IMG/VR virus record: IMGVR_UViG_3300021356_000068
Coordinates: 1-35,420 of that record
Reading direction: 5' to 3' (one strand)
DNA from: a virus
DNA: 35,420 bases
Shown: one piece after another, positions 1 through 32,788 of the stretch
How the letters are laid out: each line of letters begins with the position of its first letter
How positions within the stretch are numbered: position 1 is the first letter of the stretch
Translations under genes and position numbers: made by a program
The notes under the pieces: model-generated
What the model was told of the DNA's origin: nothing
Seen by the model: only the letters and a program-made list of their open reading frames with translations
Database searches by the model: none

Positions 1-338
1 TTTGCATCAAGTGCCTCAACGTCGTTTGAACAACTGCTGATAATTACTGCGACATTAGAACTGTGTGGTAGATTACTATGCTTCAATGCCTGATCTACAG
101 CATGAATTGCTAGTTCTTGTGCCCTGGTCATTGTCTTCAATTTTTTCGGCGCGAACCCCTCGGGAAGAAGAGTGTCATGATGACATGGTATGCCATACTG
201 AATCTTATGATCACCCATACAGTCTAACTTACGGATAGACTCGTAATCATTCACCATATTATCAAAACACTGGGTTGGTGTATTCCCCAGTGCATCGATC
301 ATTCCATAACCAACAACATATGCATTACTGACTGACAC
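1..338 (-). CDS. Beta-ketoacyl-ACP synthase-like protein, N-terminal part (runs off left edge)
   Basis: I read this frame directly. It opens with GTG at 338, preceded by GGAGG at 8 nt, and stays open to the window edge (112 codons). The translation begins with a VVGYGMIDALGN stretch and continues through a TRAQELAIHAVDQAL helix and a VAVIISSCSND strand. These match the N-terminal thiolase-fold half of FabF/KAS II enzymes, which condense acyl-ACP with malonyl-ACP. The catalytic Cys-His-His residues would lie beyond the edge and cannot be checked. It starts 4 nt after the stop of the 80-aa gene upstream, so it is probably co-transcribed. It could also be a polyketide-type ketosynthase or an inactive chain-length-factor homologue. 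Confidence 0.75.
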   Translation of the reverse strand, partial: MSVSNAYVVGYGMIDALGNTPTQCFDNMVNDYESIRKLDCMGDHKIQYGIPCHHDTLLPEGFAPKKLKTMTRAQELAIHAVDQALKHSNLPHSSNVAVIISSCSNDVEALDA

Positions 339-342
339 TGTA

Positions 343-585
343 CTATCCTCCAAATCCCTTGACAGATTCCTTCACATCATACTGACATGCATCAATAACA
401 TCAACATGACTCAAAAACTTTGAATCATACTGAAACCAAAATGATCGCATCTGCTCATAATCATCTACCGTAAGACTCTTACCATTGGTGAGTACAATAC
501 GATAAAAATGGCGATCATATGACCCATCACTCGTCTGAGTAAAGTACCTTGGATCATTTGGTTGAATCAGTTCTGTGTTTGACAC
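343..585 (-). CDS. Conserved-looking small phage protein, unknown function
   Basis: 80 aa, acidic and aromatic-rich, without membrane segments or known catalytic motifs. It follows the 74-aa gene with a 32-bp overlap and ends 4 nt before the ketosynthase GTG start, so it looks like part of one operon. I do not recognise the family. Confidence 0.6.
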   Translation of the reverse strand: MSNTELIQPNDPRYFTQTSDGSYDRHFYRIVLTNGKSLTVDDYEQMRSFWFQYDSKFLSHVDVIDACQYDVKESVKGFGG

Positions 586-11137: not shown

Positions 11138-11166
11138 ATTATAGCATCAAGTAAACCAAGTTACAA
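11138..11166 (-). promoter_or_regulatory. Sigma70-type promoter
   Basis: TTGTAA (11166-11161), 17 nt, TATAAT (11143-11138) with TGC before the -10. It lies over the end of the double-dioxygenase gene and drives the 76-aa gene starting at 11116. Confidence 0.65.
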
Positions 11167-12289
11167 TAGAGTAACGTGTTCCTTCTGTGACATCCATGAT
11201 CTGATGCGGATACATGAAGTTAGCAGGGAATAATATTACACTACCTGCACCTGCTCTGATCTGTACTTCTTTATTAAAGAATGCCATACTACCACCTTCA
11301 TAGTCATCATTTAGATTGATAGACATGGCAACAGTTCTTGGTTGTTCCTTAAAACTATCAGTATGTTCTCTGTAGAATCCACCTTTTTGATAGCGTAGCA
11401 GGTCATAACCACTATCAGACTTCAGGAAGCAAGCAGGGAAGTCTTTAATATACATCTGAGCTGCTCCATTTGCCTTCTTGAAGATCATCTTATCGATCAT
11501 GTCACGATGCAATCTATTCTTATTGATGATCCGTGGTGTAGAGATGGATATAATGTCACAGTTACGAACACTAGGATTCTGTGTATTATTAGAACTAACC
11601 CCTGCTGGTAACCAGTGCTCACAATCCCTATACTCATCAAGAATCATTTCACACTCATCTGGTGTGAAGATGTTGTCATAAACTTTGACATACTCTAGCA
11701 ACTTATTCTCGCCAGAGATTGTTGTAGTAGTCTTTACCAAGTCTTCTCTATATCGATGATCCTTATCAAAATAGTATTTGAAGCACGGACCATGCAACCT
11801 GACATAATGTAAGAATACTTGCGTACAAGACTCTCCTTTAAAAGCATCTCTACCATGCTCACCATCCATGCCCAGGTACAACATGGCATCACCTGGATGC
11901 AAGTCAACAGACTTCTTCTCACCCAAAGGTGTATAGATCCAAATAGTCCATACTTCATCACACTCCAAGTTAATGGTAAGTGAGATCTCACATTGTGGTT
12001 TATCTACATGACCTACAAGAACATTACCATTCTTATACTGTCTGGCATAAGAGTACGTTGGTAATACAGACTCTCCAACCATGTCACATACATGCTGGTT
12101 CTTCTCAACCAACAGTTCAATGAATGGTTTAAAGTCGTACTTTGCAGAACTCCCGAAGACTTGAGGGTCACTTGGGAGTTCATGAGTATTACAATACTCC
12201 TTAAATTCTTTTGCTAAGCTATCTGCTCTCTCTTTAGATATAAAATTAGGAACAATGACGTAGTTGTTGTCAATCAGTTGTTGGTTCAT
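11147..12289 (-). CDS. Fused double Fe(II)/2OG oxygenase
   Basis: 380 aa with two oxygenase domains in one chain. The N-terminal domain has H94-x-D96 (VGHVDKPQ) and H145 as a likely distal His. The C-terminal domain (about 195-380) is a prolyl-4-hydroxylase-like unit with H309-x-D311 (FYREHTDSF), GGSMAFF, H362 (MYPHQIM) and R372, the complete Fe and 2OG set. The C-terminal half is the surer one. Members hydroxylate proteins or small molecules; the substrate is unknown. It is at the end of the tail-fibre operon and overlaps the 294-aa gene by 20 bp, which suggests action on virion proteins, but this is inference. Confidence 0.75.
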   Translation of the reverse strand: MNQQLIDNNYVIVPNFISKERADSLAKEFKEYCNTHELPSDPQVFGSSAKYDFKPFIELLVEKNQHVCDMVGESVLPTYSYARQYKNGNVLVGHVDKPQCEISLTINLECDEVWTIWIYTPLGEKKSVDLHPGDAMLYLGMDGEHGRDAFKGESCTQVFLHYVRLHGPCFKYYFDKDHRYREDLVKTTTTISGENKLLEYVKVYDNIFTPDECEMILDEYRDCEHWLPAGVSSNNTQNPSVRNCDIISISTPRIINKNRLHRDMIDKMIFKKANGAAQMYIKDFPACFLKSDSGYDLLRYQKGGFYREHTDSFKEQPRTVAMSINLNDDYEGGSMAFFNKEVQIRAGAGSVILFPANFMYPHQIMDVTEGTRYSIVTWFT

Positions 12290-16778: not shown

Positions 16779-17492
16779 TCACATATCCAGTGATTGTGCA
16801 ATCTTCTTTGCAATTACTTCATTAGTAACAATACCAGAGTGTACTAAGTCTCTGGCAGTATCTACTTGCTTGATGTAATCACAATCTATTGCCTTCCTAT
16901 TTGATGGATAGAGTGTAAAATCATAGTATTTTGTGCTGCTCCACATCATCTGTGCAGTCAACCTTGTCATCCTTAGATGCTCTTCATTATGATGATCAAA
17001 CCTTCTCCATGCTTTACCAAGTCCACCAATATCTTCCTTCCACTGACCACAATGAACCACAGAATCATTCAAATATAGTGGACATCTTTGAGATGCAGAC
17101 CATGAGAACACCACTGCAAGTGGTTCAGGGTACAGTGCCTTCAACTTAGCAGAGTTATGTAAAGAAAACATAGGAGATGATCCAGGTGCTCCCATATTGA
17201 TAACTGGTCTTCCAGTTATCCCACTTAACTGTGCAGCAATGGTTGAACTTAACTCACATCCAACACCAAAAACATAAGAACATCCAAACAAAACAATACA
17301 CTTATGCCACGGAATACGATCAAACTCTTGGGTTCTATACCCCATAGAATTCAACCTATAACTGACACCAATGTTCCTATATCTCCAACTAGCTGGTTGT
17401 GACTTGGCGTTCTTTATAAACAACTGCTTACTGTCTTGGTCAAACCAAGAACCACTTTGATCGGGTCTATCCTCTAATTCGTAAATGTTCAT
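16779..17492 (-). CDS. SGNH/GDSL-family hydrolase-like protein
   Basis: 237 aa. The block VLFGCSYVFGVG carries the putative nucleophile S72. INMGAPGSS supplies the block with N99. TARDLVHSG near the C-terminus gives the D215-x-x-H218 pair, so the full Ser-Asp-His set is present. Such enzymes are esterases or lipases, often deacetylating glycans or acyl groups. GCS replaces the usual GDS, which is common in this superfamily. It follows the carbamoyltransferase with an ATGA overlap, so both probably work in one pathway on a sugar or glycan; the substrate is unknown. Confidence 0.7.
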   Translation of the reverse strand: MNIYELEDRPDQSGSWFDQDSKQLFIKNAKSQPASWRYRNIGVSYRLNSMGYRTQEFDRIPWHKCIVLFGCSYVFGVGCELSSTIAAQLSGITGRPVINMGAPGSSPMFSLHNSAKLKALYPEPLAVVFSWSASQRCPLYLNDSVVHCGQWKEDIGGLGKAWRRFDHHNEEHLRMTRLTAQMMWSSTKYYDFTLYPSNRKAIDCDYIKQVDTARDLVHSGIVTNEVIAKKIAQSLDM

Positions 17493-18913
17493 TGGAATAT
17501 TTTTATACCATGAGTATCAGACCAAACCTTGGCATCATACTCATCATTGACTATTGGTTGTCCCTTAATATTTAAACTGGTATTAAGAAGAACTGGGTGA
17601 CCAGAAACCTTACCCCAACGAAGCAATAGATCATGTAACCTTGGTGCATCAGACTTCTTCACTGTCTGCACTCTACTGGTCCCATCAACATGCACCACTC
17701 CAGGTAATAACTCTGGCATCTTACACTTGACAGTATACTGCATAAATGGACTCTCCACCATGTCATCATGCATATCAAAATACTTTGAGGCGTATTCAAT
17801 CGGAACCACTGGTGAGAATGGTCGGAACGATTGTCTATGTTTGATAGTATTAACAACGTCTTTGATATTATGAACCGTTGGATCTGCCAATAAACTCCTG
17901 GCACCAAGTGCTCTGGGTCCAAACTCTGCTCTACCTCTAGCAAGACCACATACCTTATGATACCTCAAGTATTCAACGATTGAAGCGTTTGTATGCTTAT
18001 GTAAGATCTTATATCCCAAATAGGGAGTGAATGGTATCCTTATCTTCTTATGTGCGAGCACAGCACCAATAGCAGATCCTGAGTCATCTGGTGCTGGCAT
18101 GATCCATACTCTTTTGAAGAAGTCATATGCATGTGTGTTTGCAGCGCAATTCAACGCACACCCACCCATAATCACGACATTATCACTACCAGTCAATCGT
18201 TTTGTGAGTGCTAATGCATTACAAAATAATGTAGTGTAAACCGTTTGAGATGCAGCAGCAATCTCTTCAGGACATGCCTCTGGTTGCCAATCACCTACAC
18301 CTCTGTGCATATTTTGTTTGCATTCAAAATCCATCCCAATCAATTCACCAAAAATCTTACCAACATAATCACCACCTTTACCATATGCTGATAGACCCAT
18401 CATCAAATATTCTTCTTCATTTGGTTTGAATCCACAACGCTGAGTCATTGCAGAATACCAAAGACCAATACTATTCGGATACTTAAGTCTCCAAAGTTGT
18501 TTAATATTATTACCTTTAGCAGACCAAATGCTCATGGTGGTTGTCTCACCAATACCATCAATTACAAGAATGGCACTGCTTTGGAACTTACTGGTAAAGT
18601 ATCCAGCACAAGCATGACTGTAGTGATGGTCAATAAACTTATGCTTACAATTAAAATACTTGGTGAAGTTGTCTTGAAATGGTCCTTGACCTGCTCTAAT
18701 CTGTCGCAACTTCTTCCTAAGTGGTTGCTCATACCAACAGATCAGTTCAGGTTCACCATACTTATAAGCATAATTGATCAGTTCTTCACAAATATATGGA
18801 TCGTTCTTCTTCCTACTAAAACGTTCACTCTGACTGGCAAACATGAGAGAATCATTAGAAAATACTGCTAGAGCAGCATTGTGACTATTCGATGATATCC
18901 CCCATGTTATCAT
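17489..18913 (-). CDS. Carbamoyltransferase, NodU/TobZ family
   Basis: 474 aa. The N-terminal Kae1-like fold shows H11 (SNSHNAAL), the DHHYSH cluster at 95-100, VIDG 117-120, the MMGLSAYGK stretch near 171-179 and GGCALN near 240. The C-terminal YrdC-like lobe includes RGRAEFGPRALGARSLLADP (about 326-345), the hallmark of the family. These enzymes make carbamoyl-AMP from carbamoyl phosphate and ATP and transfer the carbamoyl group to a hydroxyl of a sugar or antibiotic. The product here is unknown. It is shorter than most bacterial NodU proteins (about 570 aa). It overlaps the radical SAM gene by 29 bp and the SGNH gene by 4 bp. Confidence 0.88.
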   Translation of the reverse strand: MITWGISSNSHNAALAVFSNDSLMFASQSERFSRKKNDPYICEELINYAYKYGEPELICWYEQPLRKKLRQIRAGQGPFQDNFTKYFNCKHKFIDHHYSHACAGYFTSKFQSSAILVIDGIGETTTMSIWSAKGNNIKQLWRLKYPNSIGLWYSAMTQRCGFKPNEEEYLMMGLSAYGKGGDYVGKIFGELIGMDFECKQNMHRGVGDWQPEACPEEIAAASQTVYTTLFCNALALTKRLTGSDNVVIMGGCALNCAANTHAYDFFKRVWIMPAPDDSGSAIGAVLAHKKIRIPFTPYLGYKILHKHTNASIVEYLRYHKVCGLARGRAEFGPRALGARSLLADPTVHNIKDVVNTIKHRQSFRPFSPVVPIEYASKYFDMHDDMVESPFMQYTVKCKMPELLPGVVHVDGTSRVQTVKKSDAPRLHDLLLRWGKVSGHPVLLNTSLNIKGQPIVNDEYDAKVWSDTHGIKIFQ

Positions 18914-19736
18914 ATTGCTTCTCCCAATAACTGACAGGTAGTGTTGGATCTTGTTTGATGTAAGGTTCCGTCTTATTCGCTGGACACATAGCGCAGAACG
19001 ACTCGTCCTGTCTACTCAAAAATTCTTTTAATTGTTCGTCAGTACAATCTGAACTCAACGGTTCATATTTTAGATAAGGATCCCACTTTTGACTCAGATT
19101 ATACTTGTTTGCTTGCATAGGGAGATACGCTAATGCAGGGCACTTCCATAACTTACCCTCATGTATTTGCATAGCATGTTTAGATACACACTTCTCCCAA
19201 CTCAACCTAGGATTATTATCTTCATATGGCATAAGGTTGTTGCCATACCCCTTATATTGAGGTATCCAGTGAGTATTTGTAAAGTCCCAGAACTCTACAT
19301 GTACACCCAGGTCATGCTTCCATTCCTTTGCAAGTTTATATCCTCTCTTGAACCTCCTCACATAGTCTTTATGTTTGGTGCTATGAATCGATATCGCTAG
19401 ATTTGTCTGTGTTGCTAGTAATGCTTGAGGGAGTCTAGGGTGATTATGTAGATAACTTGCGTTTGATACTAAGTCTATTTTAGTTGATGGATCAGGATAA
19501 ATCATCCTGACCAAATACACTATGTCCGACAAATCTTTGTTTAATGTTGGCTCTCCACCTAAGATGACAAATGTATCAGGCACCACCCTTTGACTCCAAT
19601 TATATAGCCATTCTCTGGCAGTATCTAAAGATAAGTTACCAAAGTGTCCATGATTGGAGTAATGAGAGCAACCCTCGCATGTAAAATTACATGCATGAGT
19701 TACATGTAGTTCTATCTGTTTAGTATTAAATTGCAT
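18885..19736 (-). CDS. Radical SAM enzyme with C-terminal Cys cluster (copy 1)
   Basis: 283 aa. C16-x3-C20-x2-C23 (ACNFTCEGC) binds the 4Fe-4S cluster that cleaves S-adenosylmethionine. ILGGEPTLN is the GGE SAM-binding motif. The C-terminal part has several Cys (KCVSK, WKCPALAY, SDCTDEQ, SFCAMCPA), consistent with a SPASM/Twitch-type auxiliary cluster. Enzymes of this shape modify peptides or oxidise sugars. It is paralogous to the protein at 23317-24135, with identical Cys positions and shared PALAYLPMQA and KWDPYLKY blocks. It lies between the carbamoyltransferase and three tandem oxygenases. Confidence 0.85.
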   Translation of the reverse strand: MQFNTKQIELHVTHACNFTCEGCSHYSNHGHFGNLSLDTAREWLYNWSQRVVPDTFVILGGEPTLNKDLSDIVYLVRMIYPDPSTKIDLVSNASYLHNHPRLPQALLATQTNLAISIHSTKHKDYVRRFKRGYKLAKEWKHDLGVHVEFWDFTNTHWIPQYKGYGNNLMPYEDNNPRLSWEKCVSKHAMQIHEGKLWKCPALAYLPMQANKYNLSQKWDPYLKYEPLSSDCTDEQLKEFLSRQDESFCAMCPANKTEPYIKQDPTLPVSYWEKQYDNMGDIIE

Positions 19737-20247
19737 AATAGTTAAAATTGATAACTATTCTTCTATAGTCATCTGTACATGATGTACCAGTGTGCATCAT
19801 AGTAGCAGGGAATTTGACAAATCTATTTGCTACACTCTCTACCTTAGTTCCATCCTCAAACAAGGTATATCCATCATTCGTATTAACGTAGTATATACCC
19901 GTCAACATGTTGTCTGCATGAGGACCAAAGTCACAATGAAATGCCCAATCAAATACAACTAATTCTTCAGTTTGACTGATAGCATTTGCTTTTATTCTAG
20001 CAATCGCACTCATATCCTCCTTATCAATTATTGGTTCTACAATATTATATGCATTACTAATAATATGTTGTTTTGAGTAAATTAGATGGACATACTGAGA
20101 GTGACCATCTCCAGGAGAATTTATACCATTATTGAATGTCCATACACATGAGTTAGCGATGTCGCCGTTATCATAATTACCTGTCCAGTAATTATACAAA
20201 TCGTTATGTATATCTGCGTCCAGATAATTATCAACTACTTCAATCAT
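19726..20247 (-). CDS. Fe(II)/2OG oxygenase, tandem copy 3
   Basis: 173 aa. H104-x-D106 (AFHCDFGPH), H152 (MMHTGTSC) and R162/R163 (YRRIVINFNY) make the Fe(II) and 2OG ligand set. NTNDGYTLFEDGTKVESVANRF is shared almost exactly with the two genes upstream. It is the most divergent of the three, with an insertion after HxD. Family proteins are common in cyanophages; the substrate is unknown. It overlaps the radical SAM gene by 11 bp and copy 2 by 8 bp. Confidence 0.8.
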   Translation of the reverse strand: MIEVVDNYLDADIHNDLYNYWTGNYDNGDIANSCVWTFNNGINSPGDGHSQYVHLIYSKQHIISNAYNIVEPIIDKEDMSAIARIKANAISQTEELVVFDWAFHCDFGPHADNMLTGIYYVNTNDGYTLFEDGTKVESVANRFVKFPATMMHTGTSCTDDYRRIVINFNYYAI

Positions 20248-20761
20248 ATGTCGAATAATTAAAGTTAATCAGTAGTCTACGATCAGTTGTAGTACATGTT
20301 GTAGCAGTATGTCTTGTCGTGCATGGAAATCTGCAAAATCTATTTGCAACACTCTCACACTTCGTTCCATCTTCAAACAATGTGTAACCATCATTAGTAT
20401 TGATATAGTATATACCAGTTGTTAATGTTTGAGGGAAGTCAGTATGAAATCCTTTAATCAATGCCTTTAGATTCTCTGTTCTAACCATACAATTTGCTTT
20501 AATTCTAGCAATAGAAGACATACCCTCCTTCTTGATGATTGGTGTCATCAAATTAAATGCGGGACTAATAATACTATGCTGAGCAAATATCAAATGAGTG
20601 AAGTGAAAATGATCATCTGGGTCATTTAATCCAACACATCCAGGGAAAAATACCCAAGAACATGAACCATTCAATGTCCCATCATCAGTGTCACCCTCAA
20701 AATATGCACGAATATTCTCAAACTCATGTTGAGGTAGATAATCATCAATAATCTCAATCAT
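20240..20761 (-). CDS. Fe(II)/2OG oxygenase, tandem copy 2
   Basis: 173 aa. H106-x-D108 (GFHTDFPQ), H151 (TRHTATTC) and R161/R162 before LLINFNYS. Shares SSIARIKANC, TGIYYINTNDGYTLFEDG and the HTATTC block with its neighbours. Probably functional by ligand content. It is coupled to copy 1 by an ATGA overlap. Confidence 0.8.
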   Translation of the reverse strand: MIEIIDDYLPQHEFENIRAYFEGDTDDGTLNGSCSWVFFPGCVGLNDPDDHFHFTHLIFAQHSIISPAFNLMTPIIKKEGMSSIARIKANCMVRTENLKALIKGFHTDFPQTLTTGIYYINTNDGYTLFEDGTKCESVANRFCRFPCTTRHTATTCTTTDRRLLINFNYSTYD

Positions 20762-21282
20762 AAGTATTCGCAGGTAGTAAAGTTAAAGTTAATCAGCAAC
20801 CTACGTCTGGTGTTTGTGCATGTTGTTGCCGTATGTTTTGTAGTACAAGGGAACACAACAAATCTATTTGCAACACTATCGCACTTTTGCCCATCTTCAA
20901 ACAAAGTGTATCCATCATTTGTATTGATATAGTATATACCTGTCATCAAATCTTTAGGAAAATCTGTATGGAATCCATCCTTAAATACCATCAATTCAGG
21001 AGTCTGTAACATACAATTTGTTTTGATCCTAGCGATCGATGTCATTCCTGCTTTATCAATCAGAGGTTGGAGCAAATGAAATGCTTTTGGGACTAAAACA
21101 TAATTCGCAGCAAAAACTAATGACGTGAAGTGATAATGCCCATCACCCTTCAAAGTGCATCCATCAGAATATAACCAGACACAAGAACCCTCTAAAGTTC
21201 CATCGTCCATCTCACTATTATAAAATGCACGAATGCCTTCATAGTCATCTGGACTCAAAAAATCATCATAAACTCTAATCAT
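20758..21282 (-). CDS. Fe(II)/2OG oxygenase, tandem copy 1
   Basis: 174 aa from ATG 21282. HxD in GFHTDFPK, distal His in TKHTATTC, and the RRR before LLINFNFT. It is the closest relative of copy 2. The three tandem copies, all with intact ligands, indicate duplication followed by functional divergence rather than decay. It overlaps the 184-aa oxygenase upstream by 8 bp. Confidence 0.8.
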   Translation of the reverse strand: MIRVYDDFLSPDDYEGIRAFYNSEMDDGTLEGSCVWLYSDGCTLKGDGHYHFTSLVFAANYVLVPKAFHLLQPLIDKAGMTSIARIKTNCMLQTPELMVFKDGFHTDFPKDLMTGIYYINTNDGYTLFEDGQKCDSVANRFVVFPCTTKHTATTCTNTRRRLLINFNFTTCEYL

Positions 21283-21829
21283 CAATATAACCAGTTGATT
21301 TAAGCATCTCTACAGCGTCGTCAAATGACTTATGCAGAATCTGTAGACAAACACACTTACGATCAGTAATACCAGGATTAGTTGGAATAACAGAATGTGG
21401 TTTTGATACATCCAGAAGATATGCATCACCAGGTTGTGCCATGAACCTGACTGCCTTCTTCAAGTATCCTTCATGGAATATAGCACCATCAGTCTGATTA
21501 TCGATCTGCTGACGAGGAACACTATCATCAGGAGGATAGTAGAACTGAGTGATACAATCGTCAGTACTAATATAGAAATTGATGATTGCCTCAATATCAC
21601 TATCAGTATGAGGAGGGATCTGATAATTTAATTCCATCAATGAGAATGTACATTGAGATCTATATCCTTTTGGAATTACCTGAAGTAGATCCTCATCATT
21701 AGTAGTATTGATGTATGAATACTTGATTCCCATAAAACCTATGGGACTATCAAGTCCATACTCAATCTTCTTGCCAGTTTTATTGTAATGATCAATTACA
21801 AACTTCTCATTCAACTTACGAAAGAACAT
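21275..21829 (-). CDS. Putative Fe(II)/2OG oxygenase of another subfamily
   Basis: 184 aa from ATG 21829, preceded by AGGAG at 5 nt. H74-x-D76 (IPPHTDSD), distal H145 (DVSKPHSV) and R157 give a complete ligand set. The core is unlike the tandem triplet; the pattern recalls Asp/Asn beta-hydroxylase-like or phytanoyl-type proteins. Substrate unknown. It lies between the HNH nuclease gene and the triplet and is co-directional with both. Confidence 0.65.
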   Translation of the reverse strand: MFFRKLNEKFVIDHYNKTGKKIEYGLDSPIGFMGIKYSYINTTNDEDLLQVIPKGYRSQCTFSLMELNYQIPPHTDSDIEAIINFYISTDDCITQFYYPPDDSVPRQQIDNQTDGAIFHEGYLKKAVRFMAQPGDAYLLDVSKPHSVIPTNPGITDRKCVCLQILHKSFDDAVEMLKSTGYIDD

Positions 21830-21837
21830 ATTGTCTC

Positions 21838-22314
21838 CTAGGTATAACTGTATTCCCTCCATTCAGGGACATTTGATTCTGCTAGATCAATAGCAACTGT
21901 GCTATATGGTGCTCTTGGTTGCTTCCTAAGTTTTAATTTAGTCTGCTCAAGTAATTTATCACTCTTCTTGACATTACATGTAGAACATGCTACTACCAAA
22001 TTTTCCCATGTGTCTTGTCCACCCTTGCTTCTTGGAATCACATGGTCAATAGTGAGTTTAGTTGTTGCCCCACAATATTGACAAGAATTTTTATCTCTCT
22101 TATAAATCTGACTCCTGGTTGGACGATTGTTCATAATATTCCTAACAGGTATTCTAATATAATTTAATAGTCTGACAACCCTCCCAGACAGAACTTGAAC
22201 CTTATCTTTTAGAACTAAAATTACTGCCCTCTTCCAATTTGTAAAATTAATTGGTTCGTAACTTGAATTAAGAACTAATATTGTCTGATTTGGTTGTATC
22301 TTAAGATGTTCCAT
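21838..22314 (-). CDS. HNH endonuclease
   Basis: 158 aa. A zinc-binding HNH core: C78-x2-C81 (CQYCG), D90-H91 (TIDHVIPRSKGG), N105 in WENLV, and C110-x2-C113 (ACSTCN). The N-terminal 75 residues (ILVLNSSYEPINFTNWKRA) match the RRXRR-like or ssDNA-contact part typical of cyanobacterial HNH proteins. It may be a homing-type nuclease inserted beside the oxygenase genes, or a nuclease acting on host DNA. It has no intron signature around it, so a free-standing nuclease is likelier. Confidence 0.85.
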   Translation of the reverse strand: MEHLKIQPNQTILVLNSSYEPINFTNWKRAVILVLKDKVQVLSGRVVRLLNYIRIPVRNIMNNRPTRSQIYKRDKNSCQYCGATTKLTIDHVIPRSKGGQDTWENLVVACSTCNVKKSDKLLEQTKLKLRKQPRAPYSTVAIDLAESNVPEWREYSYT

Positions 22315-22341
22315 ACTTGCAAGGGTATTGTGGACATTATA

Positions 22342-22575
22342 TCACCGATACATTCTATCTGACAAGTCTAAAGAAAACAGGATCTCTTCAACAGTACCAT
22401 GACAACCCACAGACCTTTGAAGAATCTCTTCTTTTTTTCTTGTTAGATTCATATCCCTCAAGACATGCGGATTACTCTGCAACCAGACATATTCGTCTGG
22501 TGCAATGTCATCAAACTGACCCTTGTTTATCTTTGATACTATACTAAAGTATTTAATCCTGTCGGAAGCTCTCAT
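22342..22575 (-). CDS. 77-aa protein, unknown function
   Basis: 77 aa, helical and charged with a short Cys-His pair (GCHG). It follows the 251-aa gene by an ATGA overlap. Family not recognised. Confidence 0.55.
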   Translation of the reverse strand: MRASDRIKYFSIVSKINKGQFDDIAPDEYVWLQSNPHVLRDMNLTRKKEEILQRSVGCHGTVEEILFSLDLSDRMYR

Positions 22576-23327
22576 ATTTTTGATGGGTGCATAAAATCAA
22601 CAACAATAACACATCTGTAATACTTATTAGCAATCTGTTTAGGAGGCATTACTGGTTGATGGTTAATGTGTGAGTGATGAATTAGCAAAGAGTTCTCATC
22701 ACCTGGAACAATGATCTCTCTATCCTTATTCTCAATCAACGTACCAAACATCCTTGATGGATTATTAAGATAATATATCATTCCCAAGTCAAAGTTCTCA
22801 TGACTGTGACTGTTCCTATAATTTATATCTAATTCATTCTTATAATCTTCTGGATTCGTTCCCTTCATCCTCTTTGCCCAGTAGGACTGAACCTTGTACT
22901 CTTTAACCCTGGGATCATTGGTTATTCTTGCATAGTTGTAAAGATGCTTTTTAACCATACTAAAGAACACATACCAACTGGTATAATGCATCAACTTCCT
23001 ATGTGGTAATTCATTAGTCGCCTCTACAGACCTATCCCATTTATCCTTACTGATTCTTAATTCATCATCAATATCATCTAAGAGATAATCCATATGGTGA
23101 CGACTGAGCATATTATATGCTCGGTAAATCGTATTACCACAAAAATCAAAATACTCCACATCCCTATTATCTTTCCAATAAGGATCTGTTGTTATTTGCT
23201 GAGGAACTACCCTGTTAATTCTATAGTATTCATCTTTTATGATCTCATCCAATCGTTCAGATGGAGATACTCCCGCTTTTATTGCAAGTTTTTCTAAAAG
23301 ATCTAAGAGTTCACCATCAAGTATCAT
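22572..23327 (-). CDS. Putative 2OG-oxygenase-like or cupin-fold protein
   Basis: 251 aa. The C-terminal third has H174-x-H176 followed by a GMIYYLN strand, a GTLIE turn, IVPGDENSLLIHHSHINHQP (His at 217, 218, 220, 223) and R238 before CVIVVDF. This layout of first His, PGDxN, distal His and Arg looks like a double-stranded beta-helix oxygenase, but the usual HxD is HxH, so metal binding may differ. The first 165 residues are helical and not recognised. It overlaps the radical SAM gene by 11 bp. Confidence 0.5.
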   Translation of the reverse strand: MILDGELLDLLEKLAIKAGVSPSERLDEIIKDEYYRINRVVPQQITTDPYWKDNRDVEYFDFCGNTIYRAYNMLSRHHMDYLLDDIDDELRISKDKWDRSVEATNELPHRKLMHYTSWYVFFSMVKKHLYNYARITNDPRVKEYKVQSYWAKRMKGTNPEDYKNELDINYRNSHSHENFDLGMIYYLNNPSRMFGTLIENKDREIIVPGDENSLLIHHSHINHQPVMPPKQIANKYYRCVIVVDFMHPSKI

Positions 23328-24135
23328 ATTTCTTCTTCCAATAACTCACAGGTAAAAGAGGGTTAGATGGACTAAAATATTGCTCAGTAGCAGGACACAT
23401 GGAACAAAACGATTCTTCTTTGCGTGTGAAGAAGTCCTTCAATTCTTTATCATCACAAGTATGCTCAAGAGGAACGTATTTTAAATAAGGATCCCACTTC
23501 TCAGATAGATTATACTTCTCTGCTTGCATAGGAAGGTATGCTAATGCAGGACACTTCCACAACTTACCCTGATGTAGTTGCACACATAATCTTGATACAC
23601 ATGCATTCCAACTTGATTTAGGATTATTGTCTTCAAAGGGTTCCATCTTGTCACCAAACCCCTTATATTGTGCCAACCAATGAACAACAGATGGTCTCAT
23701 CTCAACAGGAGCACCTTTAGTGATCCAGTCCTTCATTAATCTATAGATTGGTTCAAACTTATTGCGATAGTCTGGATTACTATCATCATGAACAGATACA
23801 GCAAGTGTTGTATTGGTTTCTTTTAACGCTACTGCTAAATCAGGATGCCTATGCAGGAAGAATCCATTAGATACAATCTCAATGTAAGAGTTTGGCCATT
23901 TCCTTCTAGTCAGATATACAAACTCAGTAAGATCTGGATGGAGGCTTGGTTCACCACCCATCAGAGTAATCCTTTTTGGTAGAACTCTTTTATTCCAGTT
24001 GTCATACCATTCAGAGGTAGTCTCTAAACTAACCTTACCAGAATGTCCCTGATTCATGTAGTGAGTACATCCCTCACATGTAAGATTACATGAATGAGTT
24101 AAGTGTAACTGTAGTTCATGTGGTACTTTTAACAT
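23317..24135 (-). CDS. Radical SAM enzyme with C-terminal Cys cluster (copy 2)
   Basis: 272 aa. C16/C20/C23 (SCNLTCEGC), LMGGEPSLH, and the C-terminal Cys blocks ACVSR, WKCPALAY, HTCDDKE and SFCSMCPA. It is a clear paralogue of the 18885-19736 protein along its whole length, including GYGN/GFGD turns and the PVSYW ending. It likely carries an auxiliary Fe-S cluster. Its neighbours are oxygenase-like genes on both sides, as for copy 1. Substrate unknown. Confidence 0.85.
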   Translation of the reverse strand: MLKVPHELQLHLTHSCNLTCEGCTHYMNQGHSGKVSLETTSEWYDNWNKRVLPKRITLMGGEPSLHPDLTEFVYLTRRKWPNSYIEIVSNGFFLHRHPDLAVALKETNTTLAVSVHDDSNPDYRNKFEPIYRLMKDWITKGAPVEMRPSVVHWLAQYKGFGDKMEPFEDNNPKSSWNACVSRLCVQLHQGKLWKCPALAYLPMQAEKYNLSEKWDPYLKYVPLEHTCDDKELKDFFTRKEESFCSMCPATEQYFSPSNPLLPVSYWKKKYDT

Positions 24136-24668
24136 TACCCTATATTTGCGGATAGAATCATCCTTCTAACATCAGACTGATTAGTTGGTACATAGTGTGC
24201 CAACCCAGATGGGAACATAACTAAAGTCCCCTCCTCAACACCTTCTGGTTCCCACTCCAAAAGATTACCATCATCAAGACTCATAAAAGGACACACAAAT
24301 GTGGTTGGTCTATGATGCTCAGGATCATACATTATGTAGCAAACCATGCTCAGGTTCCCCAGTCCATGGTTATGAATAGCATGAGAATGTGCTAAGTCAT
24401 AGGTTTGGAACCATGCATTAGCGACTCTCGGTGCCCTCTTATACTTGACCATATCTTTGGAAGCTTTTCTAATGTCATCGAACAGAATAGTTTCAATCAA
24501 GATATGATAATTATTATCCTGTTCAAAATCAGAATTTTGCTCACCCTCATCCATATTATCCTGGGCAAATCTATCGTAAATATCCAGGAGTTTTTGCTTC
24601 TTCTCTTCCCAGTTCTCAATCTTTGTTTGGTAAAAGGGAATAGCAAACTTCTCAATAAAATTCTTCAT
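24135..24668 (-). CDS. Putative Fe(II)/2OG oxygenase
   Basis: 177 aa from ATG 24668; a GTG at 24704 is an alternative start deeper in the upstream gene. HSHAIHNHGLGNLSMVCYI (94-112) contains the likely Fe ligands, and PSGLAHYVPTNQSDVRR (about 154-169) the distal H158 and the 2OG-binding Arg. This belongs to the cyanophage group of short oxygenases with an H-x-H-N type motif. Its stop shares one base with the radical SAM start, so both are tightly coupled. Confidence 0.65.
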   Translation of the reverse strand: MKNFIEKFAIPFYQTKIENWEEKKQKLLDIYDRFAQDNMDEGEQNSDFEQDNNYHILIETILFDDIRKASKDMVKYKRAPRVANAWFQTYDLAHSHAIHNHGLGNLSMVCYIMYDPEHHRPTTFVCPFMSLDDGNLLEWEPEGVEEGTLVMFPSGLAHYVPTNQSDVRRMILSANIG

Positions 24669-24843
24669 TCCTTCGGCGGTCAAGATATTCAATAATTTCA
24701 GCACGCCATTCTAGCAGTTCGTGATAACACTTCTGCTCATGAGCGTCTTGGCGCAACTCATGGTCGGGCTTCAGCACACTCTCGTAAAAGATGTAGAATG
24801 CATCCTTACGTTTTTCTTGTTTTGTTGTGTTGTCCCAATCCAT
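24652..24843 (-). CDS. 63-aa charged helical protein
   Basis: 63 aa, all-helical, rich in Glu, Lys, His and Arg; ends RRRNEEFY. It starts directly after the stop of the next oxygenase gene. Function unknown. Confidence 0.6.
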   Translation of the reverse strand: MDWDNTTKQEKRKDAFYIFYESVLKPDHELRQDAHEQKCYHELLEWRAEIIEYLDRRRNEEFY

Positions 24844-25335
24844 TTAAATCTCCTTTGTAACTTTAAGTCCACCCACAAAAACCTGTTTACTTTTTGAGTA
24901 TTCAGACGAATGTGGAATCATCGAAGAGAATAGTAAAACCGTACCCTTTTTTGGAGTTACCCTATACTGTTCGTTTAGATGAAGAACAGTGACACCATCA
25001 AGACAGTCGTTAAGGTACAATATAAAACTATAGTCCTCGTTGTGTTTGTGTGAGTGCTTTGACATTATACCACCATTGGTATAATCTACCATGTGCATGT
25101 AATGGTACTTTAGAATTTGACCAGTAACCTCTTCTGATCTTTTTAACAATCTGCCAGTATAGTTATAAAACTTATCGGGTAGTTTAAAATTCAGCAGATT
25201 AAGAGTAGCAGAGCAACTTGGTGACAAAGAACTCTGCTTATGATCAATTACTTCGGGGTTTGCCATACAAACCTTCAGTAAGAGGGTAAAATACTCTGTT
25301 ACTTTTTCACTAACTTCAAACTTCTTGATCATCAT
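24844..25335 (-). CDS. Putative Fe(II)/2OG oxygenase
   Basis: 163 aa. SKHSHKHNEDYSFILYLND (92-110), then VTVLHL, VTPKKGTVLLF and PHSSEY with distal H142, follow the order of small phage oxygenases: metal-binding His and acidic pair, minor-sheet strand, turn before the distal His. The usual C-terminal Arg is not clear; Lys may replace it. Substrate unknown. It overlaps the 63-aa gene upstream by 20 bp. Confidence 0.65.
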   Translation of the reverse strand: MMIKKFEVSEKVTEYFTLLLKVCMANPEVIDHKQSSLSPSCSATLNLLNFKLPDKFYNYTGRLLKRSEEVTGQILKYHYMHMVDYTNGGIMSKHSHKHNEDYSFILYLNDCLDGVTVLHLNEQYRVTPKKGTVLLFSSMIPHSSEYSKSKQVFVGGLKVTKEI

Positions 25336-25936: not shown

Positions 25937-26367
25937 CCTTTACTAAAACTCAAAGTGATTCGTGGTTCAATAGTGATTGGGTTGTGATATACCCAGGCGG
26001 GAATGTACAGTCCATCCCCAGGATACAATGTTACCACATTTTTGTCATCAAATTGGTATGTCATCCTACCTCTTGACTGGACAATGAGAACGTCTTGGTC
26101 ATCATTATGTCTTCCGAGTGTCTCTGCACCTACTTTACGAGAGGTATACATGTGCATTGCTTCGTAACCACGCTCCTCCAAAAACTTTTTGTAAATGTTC
26201 TGCATAAATCCAGGAGTACATCCACAGTCAATGCACAAATCAGTGTCATCACTGACTGCCCTGTAAGTTTCATTCTCTTTCTCTAAGTCAATCTGCTTCG
26301 CAACATCTAACCAACTGATGTTTTTGGCGAATAAGTATTGCTTTTTATGGTGAGTATATTGAATCAT
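25933..26367 (-). CDS. Cupin/JmjC-like Fe(II) oxygenase
   Basis: 144 aa. H87-x-D89 (LGRHNDDQDVLIVQ), a LYPGDGLYIPAWVYHNP block with H128, and R136 before ITLSFS. The PGD-x(2)-YIP-x(3)-YH pattern is typical of JmjC-like cupin hydroxylases, here shorter than the family (200-300 aa) and possibly trimmed to the core. It lies at the junction of the oxygenase cluster and the restriction-modification-like cassette, coupled to the helicase gene by ATGA. Confidence 0.7.
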   Translation of the reverse strand: MIQYTHHKKQYLFAKNISWLDVAKQIDLEKENETYRAVSDDTDLCIDCGCTPGFMQNIYKKFLEERGYEAMHMYTSRKVGAETLGRHNDDQDVLIVQSRGRMTYQFDDKNVVTLYPGDGLYIPAWVYHNPITIEPRITLSFSKG

Positions 26368-27599
26368 CGTTTGATAGTAGCGATAGCGGGTTGACCCTGT
26401 ACAAATACAGTGTTGACGACCTTCTCAAGTCGCTTAACTGTGGAGATTCCAACGTTGCTGTAAACAGGAACGTGAACCAGACCAAATGGTTTAGAGTATT
26501 GCTTGGTATCACCAGGGATGAGAGTGCCCTGCTTGATGCCTTGAATGTCATCCAGGTGCAGACGAATGACACGTCCAACCGACTGACACATCTCAATGAC
26601 ATTCATCTGACGCATGAGAACAAGAGAAGTCAGACCAGGGACAGAGATGCCCTCACTCAGAATAGAGTAGTGGAGAACAACAAACTTCTTATCAGGATCA
26701 GCACCAAAGGCACGGACAAGGTTGAAGAAGTGCTCACGAGTGACCTTCTGATCATTATGGAAGGCACCATGCTTACTGGTGATCCAAAGCAGGTCATAAC
26801 CCAAAGCACGAACCTCAGACATGAAGTCTGTAGTTGCAAGCATACGCATCATAACCTTTGTATTGGGTGCTGCGATCAGCACCTTATCCATGCAATCTTC
26901 ATTCCTCAGTGTATCTAGGAGGGTATCACAATCTCCTTGTGCAGCATCTTCTCCCTTCTCCCTGTGAACACCAATAGGAATGGCATTGATCTTAGGAGGA
27001 AGAATAGATCCGTTCTCTACCAACTCTGTAGCAGGCACGTTGTAGATGATTCCGCCATACACGGGATCATTCATCCCGTACTTCCGATAAGTGGCAGTGT
27101 ACTTAGGAGTAGCAGTAAAGAAGTAACTGCGGCGAGCACCAGCAGAGATAAACCTGGTAGGACCAAAGAAGTTCTTCTTGATTGAGTTGTGCGCTTCATC
27201 AAAGTAGACAACATCTACAGATATATTAGACTCTTGAATACGATGAAGAGAGTGATATGTAGTAAATATTAACAAATGACCAGGAGTGTACTCCTGCCAC
27301 AAGCGAATCTCCTCAGGATTGGTTGTTGTGTGATGTGATCCACTGCCAGAGTGGACATGAAGAACAGCAGCGTTGGTGATGTGCTCAGTAAACTCAGCAG
27401 ATAACTGCTGTGCCAGCAGCAGGCGAGGAGCAACCACCACAATAGTCTTGCGACCAGGGGTAGCAAGCTCACGCTTAGCGTCAGAGATGGCAATAAAAGT
27501 CTTGCCCCCACCAGTGGGGACAACAATGATGCCGTTAGACCACTGGGTCATGACATCAAGTGCCTTTGACTGGTGAGGGCGAAGTTGCATTGAACCCAT
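26364..27599 (-). CDS. SF2 DEAH-type helicase/ATPase
   Basis: 411 aa from ATG 27599, just after the stop of the short methyltransferase gene; the longer open frame to 27722 lies over that gene. Walker A VPTGGGKT (27-34), FDEAH (133-137), FFTATP, and motif VI (CQSVGRVIR) mark a complete two-domain SF2 motor. The Type III/UvsW-like architecture fits a DNA translocase or a fork-remodelling helicase. There is no nuclease domain. Downstream it is coupled by ATGA to the cupin gene; upstream it follows the methyltransferase genes, so it may serve with them. Confidence 0.85.
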   Translation of the reverse strand: MGSMQLRPHQSKALDVMTQWSNGIIVVPTGGGKTFIAISDAKRELATPGRKTIVVVAPRLLLAQQLSAEFTEHITNAAVLHVHSGSGSHHTTTNPEEIRLWQEYTPGHLLIFTTYHSLHRIQESNISVDVVYFDEAHNSIKKNFFGPTRFISAGARRSYFFTATPKYTATYRKYGMNDPVYGGIIYNVPATELVENGSILPPKINAIPIGVHREKGEDAAQGDCDTLLDTLRNEDCMDKVLIAAPNTKVMMRMLATTDFMSEVRALGYDLLWITSKHGAFHNDQKVTREHFFNLVRAFGADPDKKFVVLHYSILSEGISVPGLTSLVLMRQMNVIEMCQSVGRVIRLHLDDIQGIKQGTLIPGDTKQYSKPFGLVHVPVYSNVGISTVKRLEKVVNTVFVQGQPAIATIKR

Positions 27600-27612
27600 A
27601 TCGATAGAGATA

Positions 27613-28029
27613 CTATACCATGAACTGATCCATTGTGATAGGTCCTGTTGTCCCATCAAACCTGTAATGATATTGAAGTGCGTCTGCACAAACGAAGTGC
27701 GGGTGATCTGTAGGGATGTCAAGTCTCCTACACATCTCTTTGTGATTGTCTTCCATCAACTCCACAGCATACAGCATGTTGTTGATGATGTGATCTCTGC
27801 TGTGATATTCCTGCAGTGTCTCACACAGACAAACAAGGAAGTTACCACTACCAGCACAGTTGTCAATGAACTTAGACTCAGGATCCTTCAGTTGTGACAC
27901 TGGTATCTCCCGAATCATCTGCTCAATCAGAGCAATGGGAGTAAAGACCTCCGCAGTCTGACTGATGCGCTCATCGGAGCGTTCAATGGTAGACCCATGC
28001 TTTTGATTGTGGCGATTCTTAGATGACAT
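27613..28029 (-). CDS. Short N6-adenine methyltransferase fragment with motifs X and I
   Basis: 138 aa. AEVFTP (26-31, motif X), IDNCAGSGNF (55-64, motif I, SAM-binding), an ELMEDNHK segment (motif II region, E90) and CADALQYHY (motif III region). It ends just where the catalytic NPPY/F motif IV is expected. It cannot therefore methylate alone. The gene upstream carries NPPY but only a degenerate motif I, so the two may complement each other as a split enzyme. It overlaps that gene by 11 bp. An alternative is that it is the remnant of an older methyltransferase. Confidence 0.75.
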   Translation of the reverse strand: MSSKNRHNQKHGSTIERSDERISQTAEVFTPIALIEQMIREIPVSQLKDPESKFIDNCAGSGNFLVCLCETLQEYHSRDHIINNMLYAVELMEDNHKEMCRRLDIPTDHPHFVCADALQYHYRFDGTTGPITMDQFMV

Positions 28030-29425
28030 TGATTCTCTGCAGGTAGTTCAGTTCTTCTGAGGTGAGACCAAATTGACCAGGCAGATCCTCATAGTTCGTG
28101 ATGTCAGGTACTTCCGCATTTTTAATAGCAGGAGTAAATCCCGAAGTCCTCTTATAATTCTCCACAAAAAACCGAATGATCGGGTTATCAAAGATCTCAC
28201 TAAGGCGCGATCCCTCCTCTTGAGAAGGAACAGGGCACCAAACATTAAGCATACCAACAAATCCATTAGAGACAAACCTCTTCTTGTAAGTGCTGGAGAA
28301 CGGTACGATGAACTTTAGCACGTCTCCAGTGTTTGGGACCACGTTGGTACGAGCAATCTTGTCACCAGTCTTGAAGACCTCATACTTACCATCAGGAACG
28401 TAGTCATCATTGGCAATCTCCTGACCAATCTTCAGAGGAATACGAGGATGGTTTGAGTTTGCAATCTTATCGAGGATAGAGTGCTTGAGAGCAGCATCAC
28501 CGAAGAGAGGCAGACCATCGCGAAGGTCCCAGGTGAAGGTCCCATCATGAGTAATCACAGTAGTCTTGCCCTGATAGGGTTCATTCACCAGATGCCAGCG
28601 ACAGATATCTACACCCTCAGTGAAGTAATCATCAGCAGTGTAGTCAATGAGTTTGAGGTTGTAGATCGTAGAGAACAACTGCATAAACTTCTTACCCTTA
28701 CCCGTGTTACCCAACACAGATGCAGGAGTAACCTCACACATGTCACCACCAGGAGCAACCATATCCAGATGCTGCTCAACCACCTTAGTCCACAGCTTAT
28801 TGTTCCGTGCCTTCTTGGTCGGATCCTGATATGGAGGATTGGCAAGAATGGCGGTGAACTTCATGTCTGGGTGGGCGGCAACGACGTTAATCTGCTTATC
28901 AATATATCCTACACGATTGCGATGACTATCGCAACTCTCCCAAACAGTGAGACTGCTGGGATCAATACCATGTTCCAGGAGTCGAGCAGAGTGAGAACCA
29001 CTGGGATCACCGAACATGTAGGTGCTGCTCATATCTTGACAGTCATTGATCATATTGTCAAGCAGATGTGCAGGAATCGCTCTCTGAATCTCAGATGAGA
29101 CCGACAGACTATCAATGGTCTTGGAGACTGACTCCCTCATGCTCTTCTGGATGCTGTTTGTCACCAAACCAATCCGACGAGTCAGGAGTTCTACGCTGTG
29201 AGGATTCTTTGAGATAACTTCAGAGAGAATACCCTCATTGTCACCAGTAACAGATGGATAGATATGAGATCCGATCACATCATTGATTGAGTACACGTTC
29301 TGACCACTACGGATAATGTAGAACATGGTCAGAGGAATGGATTCCAGGAGTGCCTTGACAGTCTGCTTCTTCAGAGTGTCAAGGTCGTCTGCTTTTTTAC
29401 GCGATCTACCTCCATCACAACGCAA
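28019..29425 (-). CDS. N6-adenine methyltransferase-like protein (NPPY), probably made by -1 frameshift from the helicase
   Basis: 468 codons from a TTG at 29425, but no convincing start or Shine-Dalgarno exists for it. The frame is entered exactly by a -1 shift at 29392-29398 in the helicase gene, so I expect a fusion. GDPSGSHSARLL (139-150) is a degenerate motif I, VWESCD motif II, and ILANPPYQDP (193-202) the catalytic motif IV; EVTPASVLG is the strand after it. The C-terminal 200 residues resemble the target-recognition part of Type I/IIG methyltransferases. As Eco57I-type enzymes methylate adenine at N6, that is the expected reaction. The poor motif I makes activity uncertain without the downstream 138-aa protein. 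Confidence 0.75.
   Translation of the reverse strand: MRCDGGRSRKKADDLDTLKKQTVKALLESIPLTMFYIIRSGQNVYSINDVIGSHIYPSVTGDNEGILSEVISKNPHSVELLTRRIGLVTNSIQKSMRESVSKTIDSLSVSSEIQRAIPAHLLDNMINDCQDMSSTYMFGDPSGSHSARLLEHGIDPSSLTVWESCDSHRNRVGYIDKQINVVAAHPDMKFTAILANPPYQDPTKKARNNKLWTKVVEQHLDMVAPGGDMCEVTPASVLGNTGKGKKFMQLFSTIYNLKLIDYTADDYFTEGVDICRWHLVNEPYQGKTTVITHDGTFTWDLRDGLPLFGDAALKHSILDKIANSNHPRIPLKIGQEIANDDYVPDGKYEVFKTGDKIARTNVVPNTGDVLKFIVPFSSTYKKRFVSNGFVGMLNVWCPVPSQEEGSRLSEIFDNPIIRFFVENYKRTSGFTPAIKNAEVPDITNYEDLPGQFGLTSEELNYLQRINVI
29353..29413 (-). promoter_or_regulatory. Programmed -1 ribosomal frameshift element, dnaX-like
   Basis: In minus-strand order: GGAGG at 29413-29409; 10 nt; slippery heptamer A_AAA_AAG at 29398-29392 in phase with the helicase codons GTA AAA AAG; 7 nt; stem CCTTGACA (29384-29377) pairing with TGTCAAGG (29360-29353). 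Inside the 16-nt loop a further TCTG/CAGA stem forms with an AAGAAG hexaloop. The 0 frame stops at 29371-29373, 18 nt after the heptamer. After a -1 slip the next codon is GCA of the methyltransferase frame. Three elements at the spacings known from E. coli dnaX make chance unlikely. Confidence 0.8.
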
Positions 29426-31237: not shown

Positions 31238-32788
31238 TTATACAGTTGGTGCGGTGTACCTCACCGTGAATGGCAATGCCTTCTCACGAATCAACGGTGC
31301 TGAGTCGCGTGCAACAAGAGCATCAATAGAACTCTTGTAAACATCCGTCATAAACTTTGGATAGAGTCCAATCGCGATGATAGGGACAAGCAAAGCACTG
31401 ACGACATAAACCTCACGGGGTTCTGCATCAACCAAGTTTGTATGGGAGACCAGTTCTGGATTGGGTTTACCATAGAAGATCTCGCGCAGCATCGAGAGCA
31501 GGTAGATCGGAGTCAGGATAACTCCAATAGCAGCAACTGCACACATGATGATACGGAATGGCAAACCATACATCGTGTCAGTTGCAAATCCAGCAAAGAC
31601 CATCAACTCACTCACAAATCCACTCATGCCTGGGAGGGCAAGAGATGCCATGGAACACATTGTCCACAGAGCAAACATAACCTTCATATTCTGACCAACA
31701 CCACCCATCTCGTCCAACTGGAGAGTATGAGTCCTGTCATAGGTAGCACCCACCAGGAAGAATAGGGATGCACCAATCAGACCATGACTGATCATCTGAA
31801 GCATGGCACCACTGGTGCCGAGAGCACTGTAACTACCAATGCCAATGAGAACGAATCCCATATGACTAATAGAACTGTAAGCAATCTTCTTCTTAAGATT
31901 CCTTTGTGCAAACGAAGTAAGTGCTGCATAGATGATATTGATAGCGCCAAGGACAATTAGGAGCGGTGCAAACACCGCATGTGCTTCAGGCAGCAGTTGA
32001 CAGTTGAACCGCAGAAGTGCGTATCCACCCATCTTAAGAAGAATACCTGCCAGCAGCATGTGAACTGGTGCGGTTGCTTCACCATGAGCATCAGGCAACC
32101 ATGTATGAACTGGTACAATAGGGAGTTTGACGCCAAAGGCAATCAAGAATCCTGCATAGCACCAGAGTTGGAAATTCTTTGGGAATCCTTGCTGCATCAG
32201 AGTGGTGTACTCAAAGTTGGGAGCACCACCACCTGCCCAGAATCCCATCGCCAGTCCAGCAATAAGAATGAACAGAGAACTTCCTGCAGTGTAGATAATG
32301 AACTTCGTAGCAGCATACTGGCGATTTTTACCTCCCCAGATTGCAATCATGAGATACACAGGAACAAGTTCCAATTCCCACGACAAGAAGAACAAGATCA
32401 AATCTTGAACTGCAAAGACCATAATCTGACCACCTGCCATCAGAAGCAGCAGGAAGTAGAAAAGTTTAGGTTTGAATGTAACTGGCCAAGCAGCAAGTGC
32501 TGCCAGACTTGTAATAAAACTTGTCAGCAGAATGAGGGGCATTGACAAACCATCTGCACCCACAGACCAGGTGAGTCCTAGTGAAGGAACCCACGAGATC
32601 CTCTCTGCCATTTGTAGACCACTGATAGAGGGATCATATCCATTGATATACCCTGCTACCGTGATGATGAACGTAATTAAACACGCTCCCAATCCATACC
32701 ATCGGACAACCTTATTACCTTCTGGAAGGAAGAAGATGCCGAGAGAACATGCGATCGGGAACAATATAGCAAGACTCAACCAGGGCAT
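31238..32788 (-). CDS. ndhD: NAD(P)H-quinone oxidoreductase subunit NdhD (chain 4)
   Basis: 516 aa, about full length for cyanobacterial NdhD1/D2. It has about 14 membrane segments. The proton-channel residues of the MrpD/NuoM fold are present: E138 in [11 protein letters not shown]221 in [21 protein letters not shown]252 in ILLKMGG and K299-301 in LKKKIAYSS. NdhD is the distal antiporter-like subunit that pumps protons in NDH-1, for respiration and cyclic electron flow around photosystem I. The N-terminus ([12 protein letters not shown]) aligns with the D1 type rather than the CO2-uptake D3/D4 type. It is boxed between two near-identical terminators with its own extended -10, as a self-contained cargo gene. 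Confidence 0.93.

What the first reader, a model, noticed from the sequence alone, without database searches (positions are those of the whole stretch)
1..338. A beta-ketoacyl synthase gene in a phage
The first 112 residues read as FabF-like. A fatty acid or polyketide condensing enzyme in a cyanophage would be an unusual metabolic gene and might alter host lipids. It has a good Shine-Dalgarno and GTG start.
Basis: partly seen in the sequence, partly recalled or inferred. Interest (0 to 1): 0.6.

Follow-up and report, generated by a model that had tools for sequence, protein, structure and literature searches.

The report
Cyanophage fatty-acid condensing enzyme gene
The left edge of this piece of a cyanobacterial virus carries the start of a gene for a fatty-acid chain-building enzyme, a member of a virus-only enzyme family that in many other aquatic phages lies beside fatty-acid desaturase genes, so these viruses probably retune their host's lipids during infection.

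Summary
Window 3-338 (-) encodes the first 112 residues of a beta-ketoacyl-ACP synthase (KAS); the ORF runs off the left end (Pfam PF00109, E 2.8e-5; GTG start, GGAGG 8 nt upstream). The record is a cyanophage: NdhD, transaldolase and Gnd genes, and the nearest relative's record carries psbA and psbD. At least 104 IMG/VR contigs encode relatives (best 80 listed, 41-100% identity). In 53 compared, Cys-His-Lys-His is invariant. The AF2 model of the closest relative matches FabF. All viral copies form one clade, far from bacterial FabF (best 28-35% identity found). The invariant FabF pocket loop GSGIGG is replaced by SSxSND-like residues, also in the window, so acyl specificity has probably changed. 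KAS is near a membrane desaturase in 24/53 viral loci, and overlaps a soluble acyl-ACP desaturase gene in 3 loci, where an ACP is also encoded. But no desaturase or ACP was found in the window or its own (incomplete) cyanophage clade. Best reading: a viral KAS II-like elongase that redirects host acyl-ACP during infection. One paper already lists fabF plus stearoyl-CoA desaturase in freshwater pelagimyophages; I found no report of the family-wide picture, the cyanophage members or the altered pocket.

The parts
3..338 (-). 5' part (112 codons, GTG start, open at the left end) of a beta-ketoacyl-ACP synthase (KAS II / FabF-like) gene
   Evidence: tree position beside L035
21..38 (-). codons 101-106 (SSCSND), the position of the FabF GSGIGG acyl-pocket loop (I108 gate); the three Gly of the bacterial loop are in 51/51 bacterial copies and the loop is replaced throughout the viral family
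347..351 (-). Shine-Dalgarno GGAGG, 8 nt before the GTG
   Evidence: read from sequence
343..585 (-). upstream gene, 80 aa, DUF7441, same strand, stop 4 nt before the KAS start; the same two small genes precede KAS in the nearest relative L035

Best explanation
The gene encodes a virus-lineage beta-ketoacyl-ACP synthase of the FabF (KAS II) kind. Shown by sequence and model: KAS family, FabF fold, invariant Cys-His-Lys-His in relatives, purifying selection, an altered acyl-pocket loop. Inferred: during infection the enzyme takes acyl chains from the host's acyl-ACP onto its Cys, condenses them with malonyl-ACP (His/His/Lys) and hands a beta-ketoacyl-ACP back to host FabG/FabZ/FabI, so a chosen acyl chain is lengthened by two carbons (for example C14/C16 to C16/C18). 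Where the phage also encodes a desaturase, the two together would raise longer or unsaturated acyl chains for membrane (in cyanobacteria, thylakoid) lipids. In the window's cyanophage the viral KAS would act with host enzymes only, unless partners lie in the unsequenced part.
For: Both KAS Pfam domains in full-length relatives; fabF model 205-255 bits; nearest solved chains are FabF, E 7e-49; AF2 pLDDT 86.5, pTM 0.90, Foldseek best hits all FabF, TM 0.86-0.89. C157, H286, K314, H319, F378, F380 in 53/53; dN/dS 0.14-0.31. Membrane desaturase within 10 kb in 24/53 viral KAS loci and in 23/48 whole records. Reciprocally 24 of 38 viral desaturase loci hold KAS, and the 14 without it have about 5.5 kb or less of downstream sequence by my reading of the coordinates. 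A soluble acyl-ACP desaturase (PF03405, 178 bits) overlaps the KAS end in 3/3 viral loci, and the two records tested also encode an ACP. Precedent: fabF overexpression in Synechococcus elongatus moves C14/C16 to C18, and with added desA/desB raises unsaturated product (PMC6123915).
Against: The window lacks the active site. No desaturase (A2 profile, PF00487, PF03405) or ACP was found in the window or its clade's records, including a 119-kb one, though all are fragments. Scores are far below the FabF equivalog cut-off (255 against 493.75). The pocket loop differs from all FabF compared, so the substrate may not be an ordinary fatty acyl-ACP. No expression or biochemical data. The desaturase link is partly inherited by lineage.
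Confidence: 0.6

Rival explanations
1. The viral KAS is one step of a phage-encoded pathway for a special acyl metabolite (an oxidised or amine-linked acyl compound), not bulk membrane lipid. The altered pocket accepts an unusual starter, and neighbouring 2OG/aspartyl-hydroxylase-like oxygenases, P450, AdoMet decarboxylase and amidinotransferase tailor the product.
For: Pocket loop altered throughout the family; freshwater cassette of desaturase, several oxygenase-like paralogs, KAS, AdoMetDC, polyamine-type amidinotransferase (best PDB match HsvA), Asp-hydroxylase-like genes; L111 with ACP, P450, 2OG oxygenases, KAS, acyl-ACP desaturase.
Against: Oxygenase paralogs are common in such phages without KAS (general knowledge); the cassettes differ between lineages; in the window's clade KAS is flanked by small unknown genes; no thioesterase, ligase or full reducing set was seen, though not searched for systematically.
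Confidence: 0.2
2. The gene is a recent pick-up of the host's own fabF, simply adding dosage of an ordinary KAS II.
For: FabF is the closest characterised family.
Against: All viral copies form one clade against 51 bacterial FabF (SH-aLRT 100); bacterial matches found are at most about 35% identical; Synechocystis FabF (1e5m) scores lower than Firmicute FabF (128 against 170 bits).
Confidence: 0.05
3. Lipid remodelling is aimed at the virion or host surface (for example acyl chains for a lipid or glycan of the envelope) rather than the photosynthetic membrane.
For: Glycosyltransferase-like and 2OG-like genes lie close to KAS in the cyanophage clade (c33, c15).
Against: Such genes are widespread in these phages and their order relative to KAS is conserved only among close relatives.
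Confidence: 0.1
4. Bacterial DNA mis-binned as virus.
For: INPHARED KAS hits are mostly in unannotated records that look like bacterial host fragments; the Rhodobacteraceae prophage report describes a host-like fabG-acpP-fabF order.
Against: The window and relatives sit among phage genes (S74 tail-fibre chaperone domain, talC, gnd, psbA/psbD in the relative, UvsX/gp32-like genes in others) and the bacterial genome scan found no member of the family.
Confidence: 0.02

Closest known systems
FabF / KAS II (beta-ketoacyl-ACP synthase II; PF00109+PF02801, TIGR03150)
   Same: Fold, length and the Cys-His-Lys-His catalytic set with the NSFGFGG motif
   Different: About 24-30% identity; far below the equivalog cut-off; GSGIGG pocket loop replaced; separate viral clade
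Freshwater pelagimyophages of Ca. Fonsibacter (PMC7029224)
   Same: That paper lists fabF, stearoyl-CoA desaturase, speH and a 2OG-Fe dioxygenase as genes unique to them, probably the L060/L069 group here
   Different: The paper gives one sentence; no family analysis, no cyanophages, no catalytic or pocket analysis; identity of those genomes with L060/L069 not tested
Cyanophage lipid desaturases vFAD (Roitman et al. 2018; known to me from memory and as cited in PMC8224337; text not held)
   Same: Phage genes for host fatty-acid modification
   Different: Desaturase, not condensing enzyme; the KAS-carrying cyanophage records here showed no desaturase
ACP and ACP synthetase genes of two co-isolated MED4-infecting cyanophages (PMC3037559)
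   Same: Fatty-acid synthesis parts in cyanophages
   Different: The passages found there mention no ketoacyl synthase; the window's clade has no ACP found
acpP-fabF-fabG in Rhodobacteraceae prophages (PMC8224337)
   Same: fabF reported in phage regions
   Different: Same gene order as the bacterial operon; may be host flank (my inference)

Membership tests
Beta-ketoacyl synthase (thiolase-like KAS I/II) | PF00109 and PF02801 domains | tested here: met
   Window fragment over the PF00109 cut-off; both domains in full-length relatives
Beta-ketoacyl synthase (thiolase-like KAS I/II) | Catalytic Cys-His-His plus Lys | tested here: inconclusive
   Invariant in 53/53 relatives; not visible in the window, which ends at residue 112
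FabF (KAS II) equivalog | TIGR03150 curated cut-off 493.75 bits | tested here: not met
   177-258 bits in the 13 full-length viral copies scored
FabF (KAS II) equivalog | GSGIGG acyl-pocket loop | tested here: not met
   Three Gly in 51/51 bacterial copies; the first (G103) in 0/54 viral copies; window has SSCSND
FabF (KAS II) equivalog | FabF fold | tested here: met
   AF2 model of L001 (89% identical over the fragment): TM 0.86-0.89 to FabF structures
FabF (KAS II) equivalog | Condensing activity on C16 acyl-ACP | not testable with these tools
   Needs enzyme assay
Phage auxiliary metabolic gene | Metabolic gene inside a phage genome, kept by selection, not a host flank | tested here: met
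   Phage gene neighbours, dN/dS 0.14-0.31, viral clade

The most novel reading that the evidence does not exclude
Aquatic phages of several lineages share an old, virus-only condensing enzyme with a rebuilt acyl pocket, used with viral desaturases, and in some with ACP, P450, AdoMet decarboxylase and amidinotransferase, to make acyl chains or acyl-amine compounds that the host does not make.
Probability: 0.2. Interest if true: 0.82.

Novelty: new variant of a known kind. Interest (0 to 1): 0.55.

Why it matters
If right, phages carry not only a desaturase, a step on finished acyl chains, but also a chain-building step of fatty-acid synthesis, in a form that has evolved inside viruses. It would make the question of how phages reshape host lipids testable with a single soluble enzyme and simple fatty-acid profiles, and would give a marker gene (KAS beside desaturase) for lipid-remodelling phages in aquatic data.

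Tried and rejected
PHROGs and INPHARED searches with the fragment gave nothing; with the full-length relative INPHARED gave 28 records under 60% identity (24-35% as listed), mostly unannotated host-like fragments. A host-derived fabF was rejected by the tree and identity. Desaturase alignment A2 was too diverse for a pattern scan; replaced by A3. PhoH-anchored loci as control: 9 with both KAS and desaturase, 45 with neither, but this is one lineage plus outgroups, so its Fisher p is not an independent test. A sample of FabF from the phylum of G052 (phylum not named by the tool; I had hoped for cyanobacteria) was used only as tree rows. The AF2 job on the amidinotransferase had not finished and is not used.

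Full report
Observation. On the minus strand the window opens with the 5' part of a gene: GTG at 338-336, GGAGG 8 nt before it, 112 open codons to the end of the record. The record is a 35,420-base virus contig, so nothing lies to the left. The fragment passes the Pfam cut-off for the N-terminal ketoacyl-synthase domain and is matched by 32 viral loci, the closest 89% identical.

The phage. The window encodes NdhD (87.6% aa identity to Synechococcus phage S-SCSM2R, 84% to two other Synechococcus phages), transaldolase and 6-phosphogluconate dehydrogenase-like genes, and a protein with an S74 chaperone domain typical of tail fibres. The 119-kb record holding the closest relative, L035, carries two Photo_RC genes (299 and 243 bits), which I read as psbA and psbD. 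The two genes just upstream of KAS are shared between the window and L035. The window is therefore a cyanophage fragment, most likely of Synechococcus (inference from the NdhD match).

The enzyme. Full-length relatives are mostly 375-419 aa. Across 53 of them Cys157, His286, Lys314, His319, Phe378, Phe380 and Gly381 (L035 numbering) never vary. The fabF model gives 205-255 bits on five tested, against a cut-off of 493.75. The AF2 model of L001 (pLDDT 86.5, pTM 0.90) matches FabF crystal structures with TM 0.86-0.89. The gene is under purifying selection (dN/dS 0.14-0.31). I infer an active elongating condensing enzyme; that the window's own copy keeps the catalytic residues is inferred from relatives at 79-89% identity.

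What is odd. The GSGIGG loop, which in FabF holds the Ile108 gate of the acyl pocket (established knowledge, not tested here), has its three Gly in 51/51 bacterial copies; most viral copies have S-(S/T)-x-S-N-D, none has the first Gly, and the window itself has SSCSND. The substrate pocket has probably changed.

Neighbours elsewhere. Around 53 viral KAS loci, a membrane desaturase (three His boxes; alignment A2) lies within 10 kb in 24, in differing gene orders. Of 38 loci found by their desaturase, 24 carry KAS; in the other 14 the contig leaves at most about 5.5 kb downstream. In L047, L111 and a further contig a different, soluble acyl-ACP desaturase overlaps the KAS end, and the records of L047 and L111 also encode an ACP. 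In L102 a MaoC-like dehydratase lies nearby. On the KAS tree the desaturase label needs 9 changes, so it is not one inherited block; part of this may come from contigs cut short. These facts tie the family to fatty-acid chemistry. However, none of the records of the window's own clade showed a desaturase or ACP; they are incomplete.

Mechanism. Most likely the viral KAS elongates host acyl-ACP by two carbons and feeds the host's reducing enzymes; with a viral desaturase it would shift chain length and unsaturation together. Overexpression of the native fabF in S. elongatus turns C14/C16 into C18, and with added desaturases raises unsaturated product (PMC6123915). The mechanism is inference; no assay exists.

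What is known. PMC7029224 lists fabF, a stearoyl-CoA desaturase and speH in freshwater pelagimyophages, probably the L060/L069 group. Cyanophage desaturases and an ACP with its synthetase are known (Roitman et al. 2018 as cited in PMC8224337; PMC3037559). I found no paper on a phage KAS family, on cyanophage KAS, or on the altered pocket in nine searches of an open-access library; subscription papers are mostly not held. Verdict: a real, probably functional, virus-lineage KAS; a new variant of a known kind.

Noticed in passing
window 16779-25335 (-): Block with two radical SAM genes, a carbamoyltransferase, several 2OG-Fe oxygenase-like genes and an HNH nuclease; resembles a cassette in Pelagibacter phage Mosig (carbamoyltransferase, MoaA-like genes, aminotransferase, Asp-hydroxylase, desaturase).
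   Followed up: partly
window 31238-32788 (-): NdhD gene, 84-88% aa identical to NdhD of three Synechococcus phages.
   Followed up: partly
window 26364-29425 (-): DEAD/ResIII helicase beside an Eco57I-like DNA methylase (28019-29425) and an overlapping ORF with an N6-methylase match (27613-28029): a restriction-modification-like set.
   Followed up: no
window 11147-12289 (-): 380-aa ORF that matches PHROG ferrochelatase families and also 2OG oxygenase and DNA endonuclease families.
   Followed up: no
L069 11168-13217 and similar freshwater loci: After KAS: AdoMet decarboxylase, an unknown 160-aa protein, and an amidinotransferase closest among solved structures to HsvA, inosamine-phosphate amidinotransferase, SxtG and AGAT.
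   Followed up: partly
L111 2501-12095; L047 5672-12807: Phage segment with ACP, several oxygenases, KAS and acyl-ACP desaturase; L111 also a cytochrome P450, L047 also a PhyH-like gene.
   Followed up: partly
L109 11115-11312; L102 11199-11543: Small ORF between KAS and a 270-aa oxygenase-like gene, sharing a C-terminal NSxHNSxxRTR motif.
   Followed up: no
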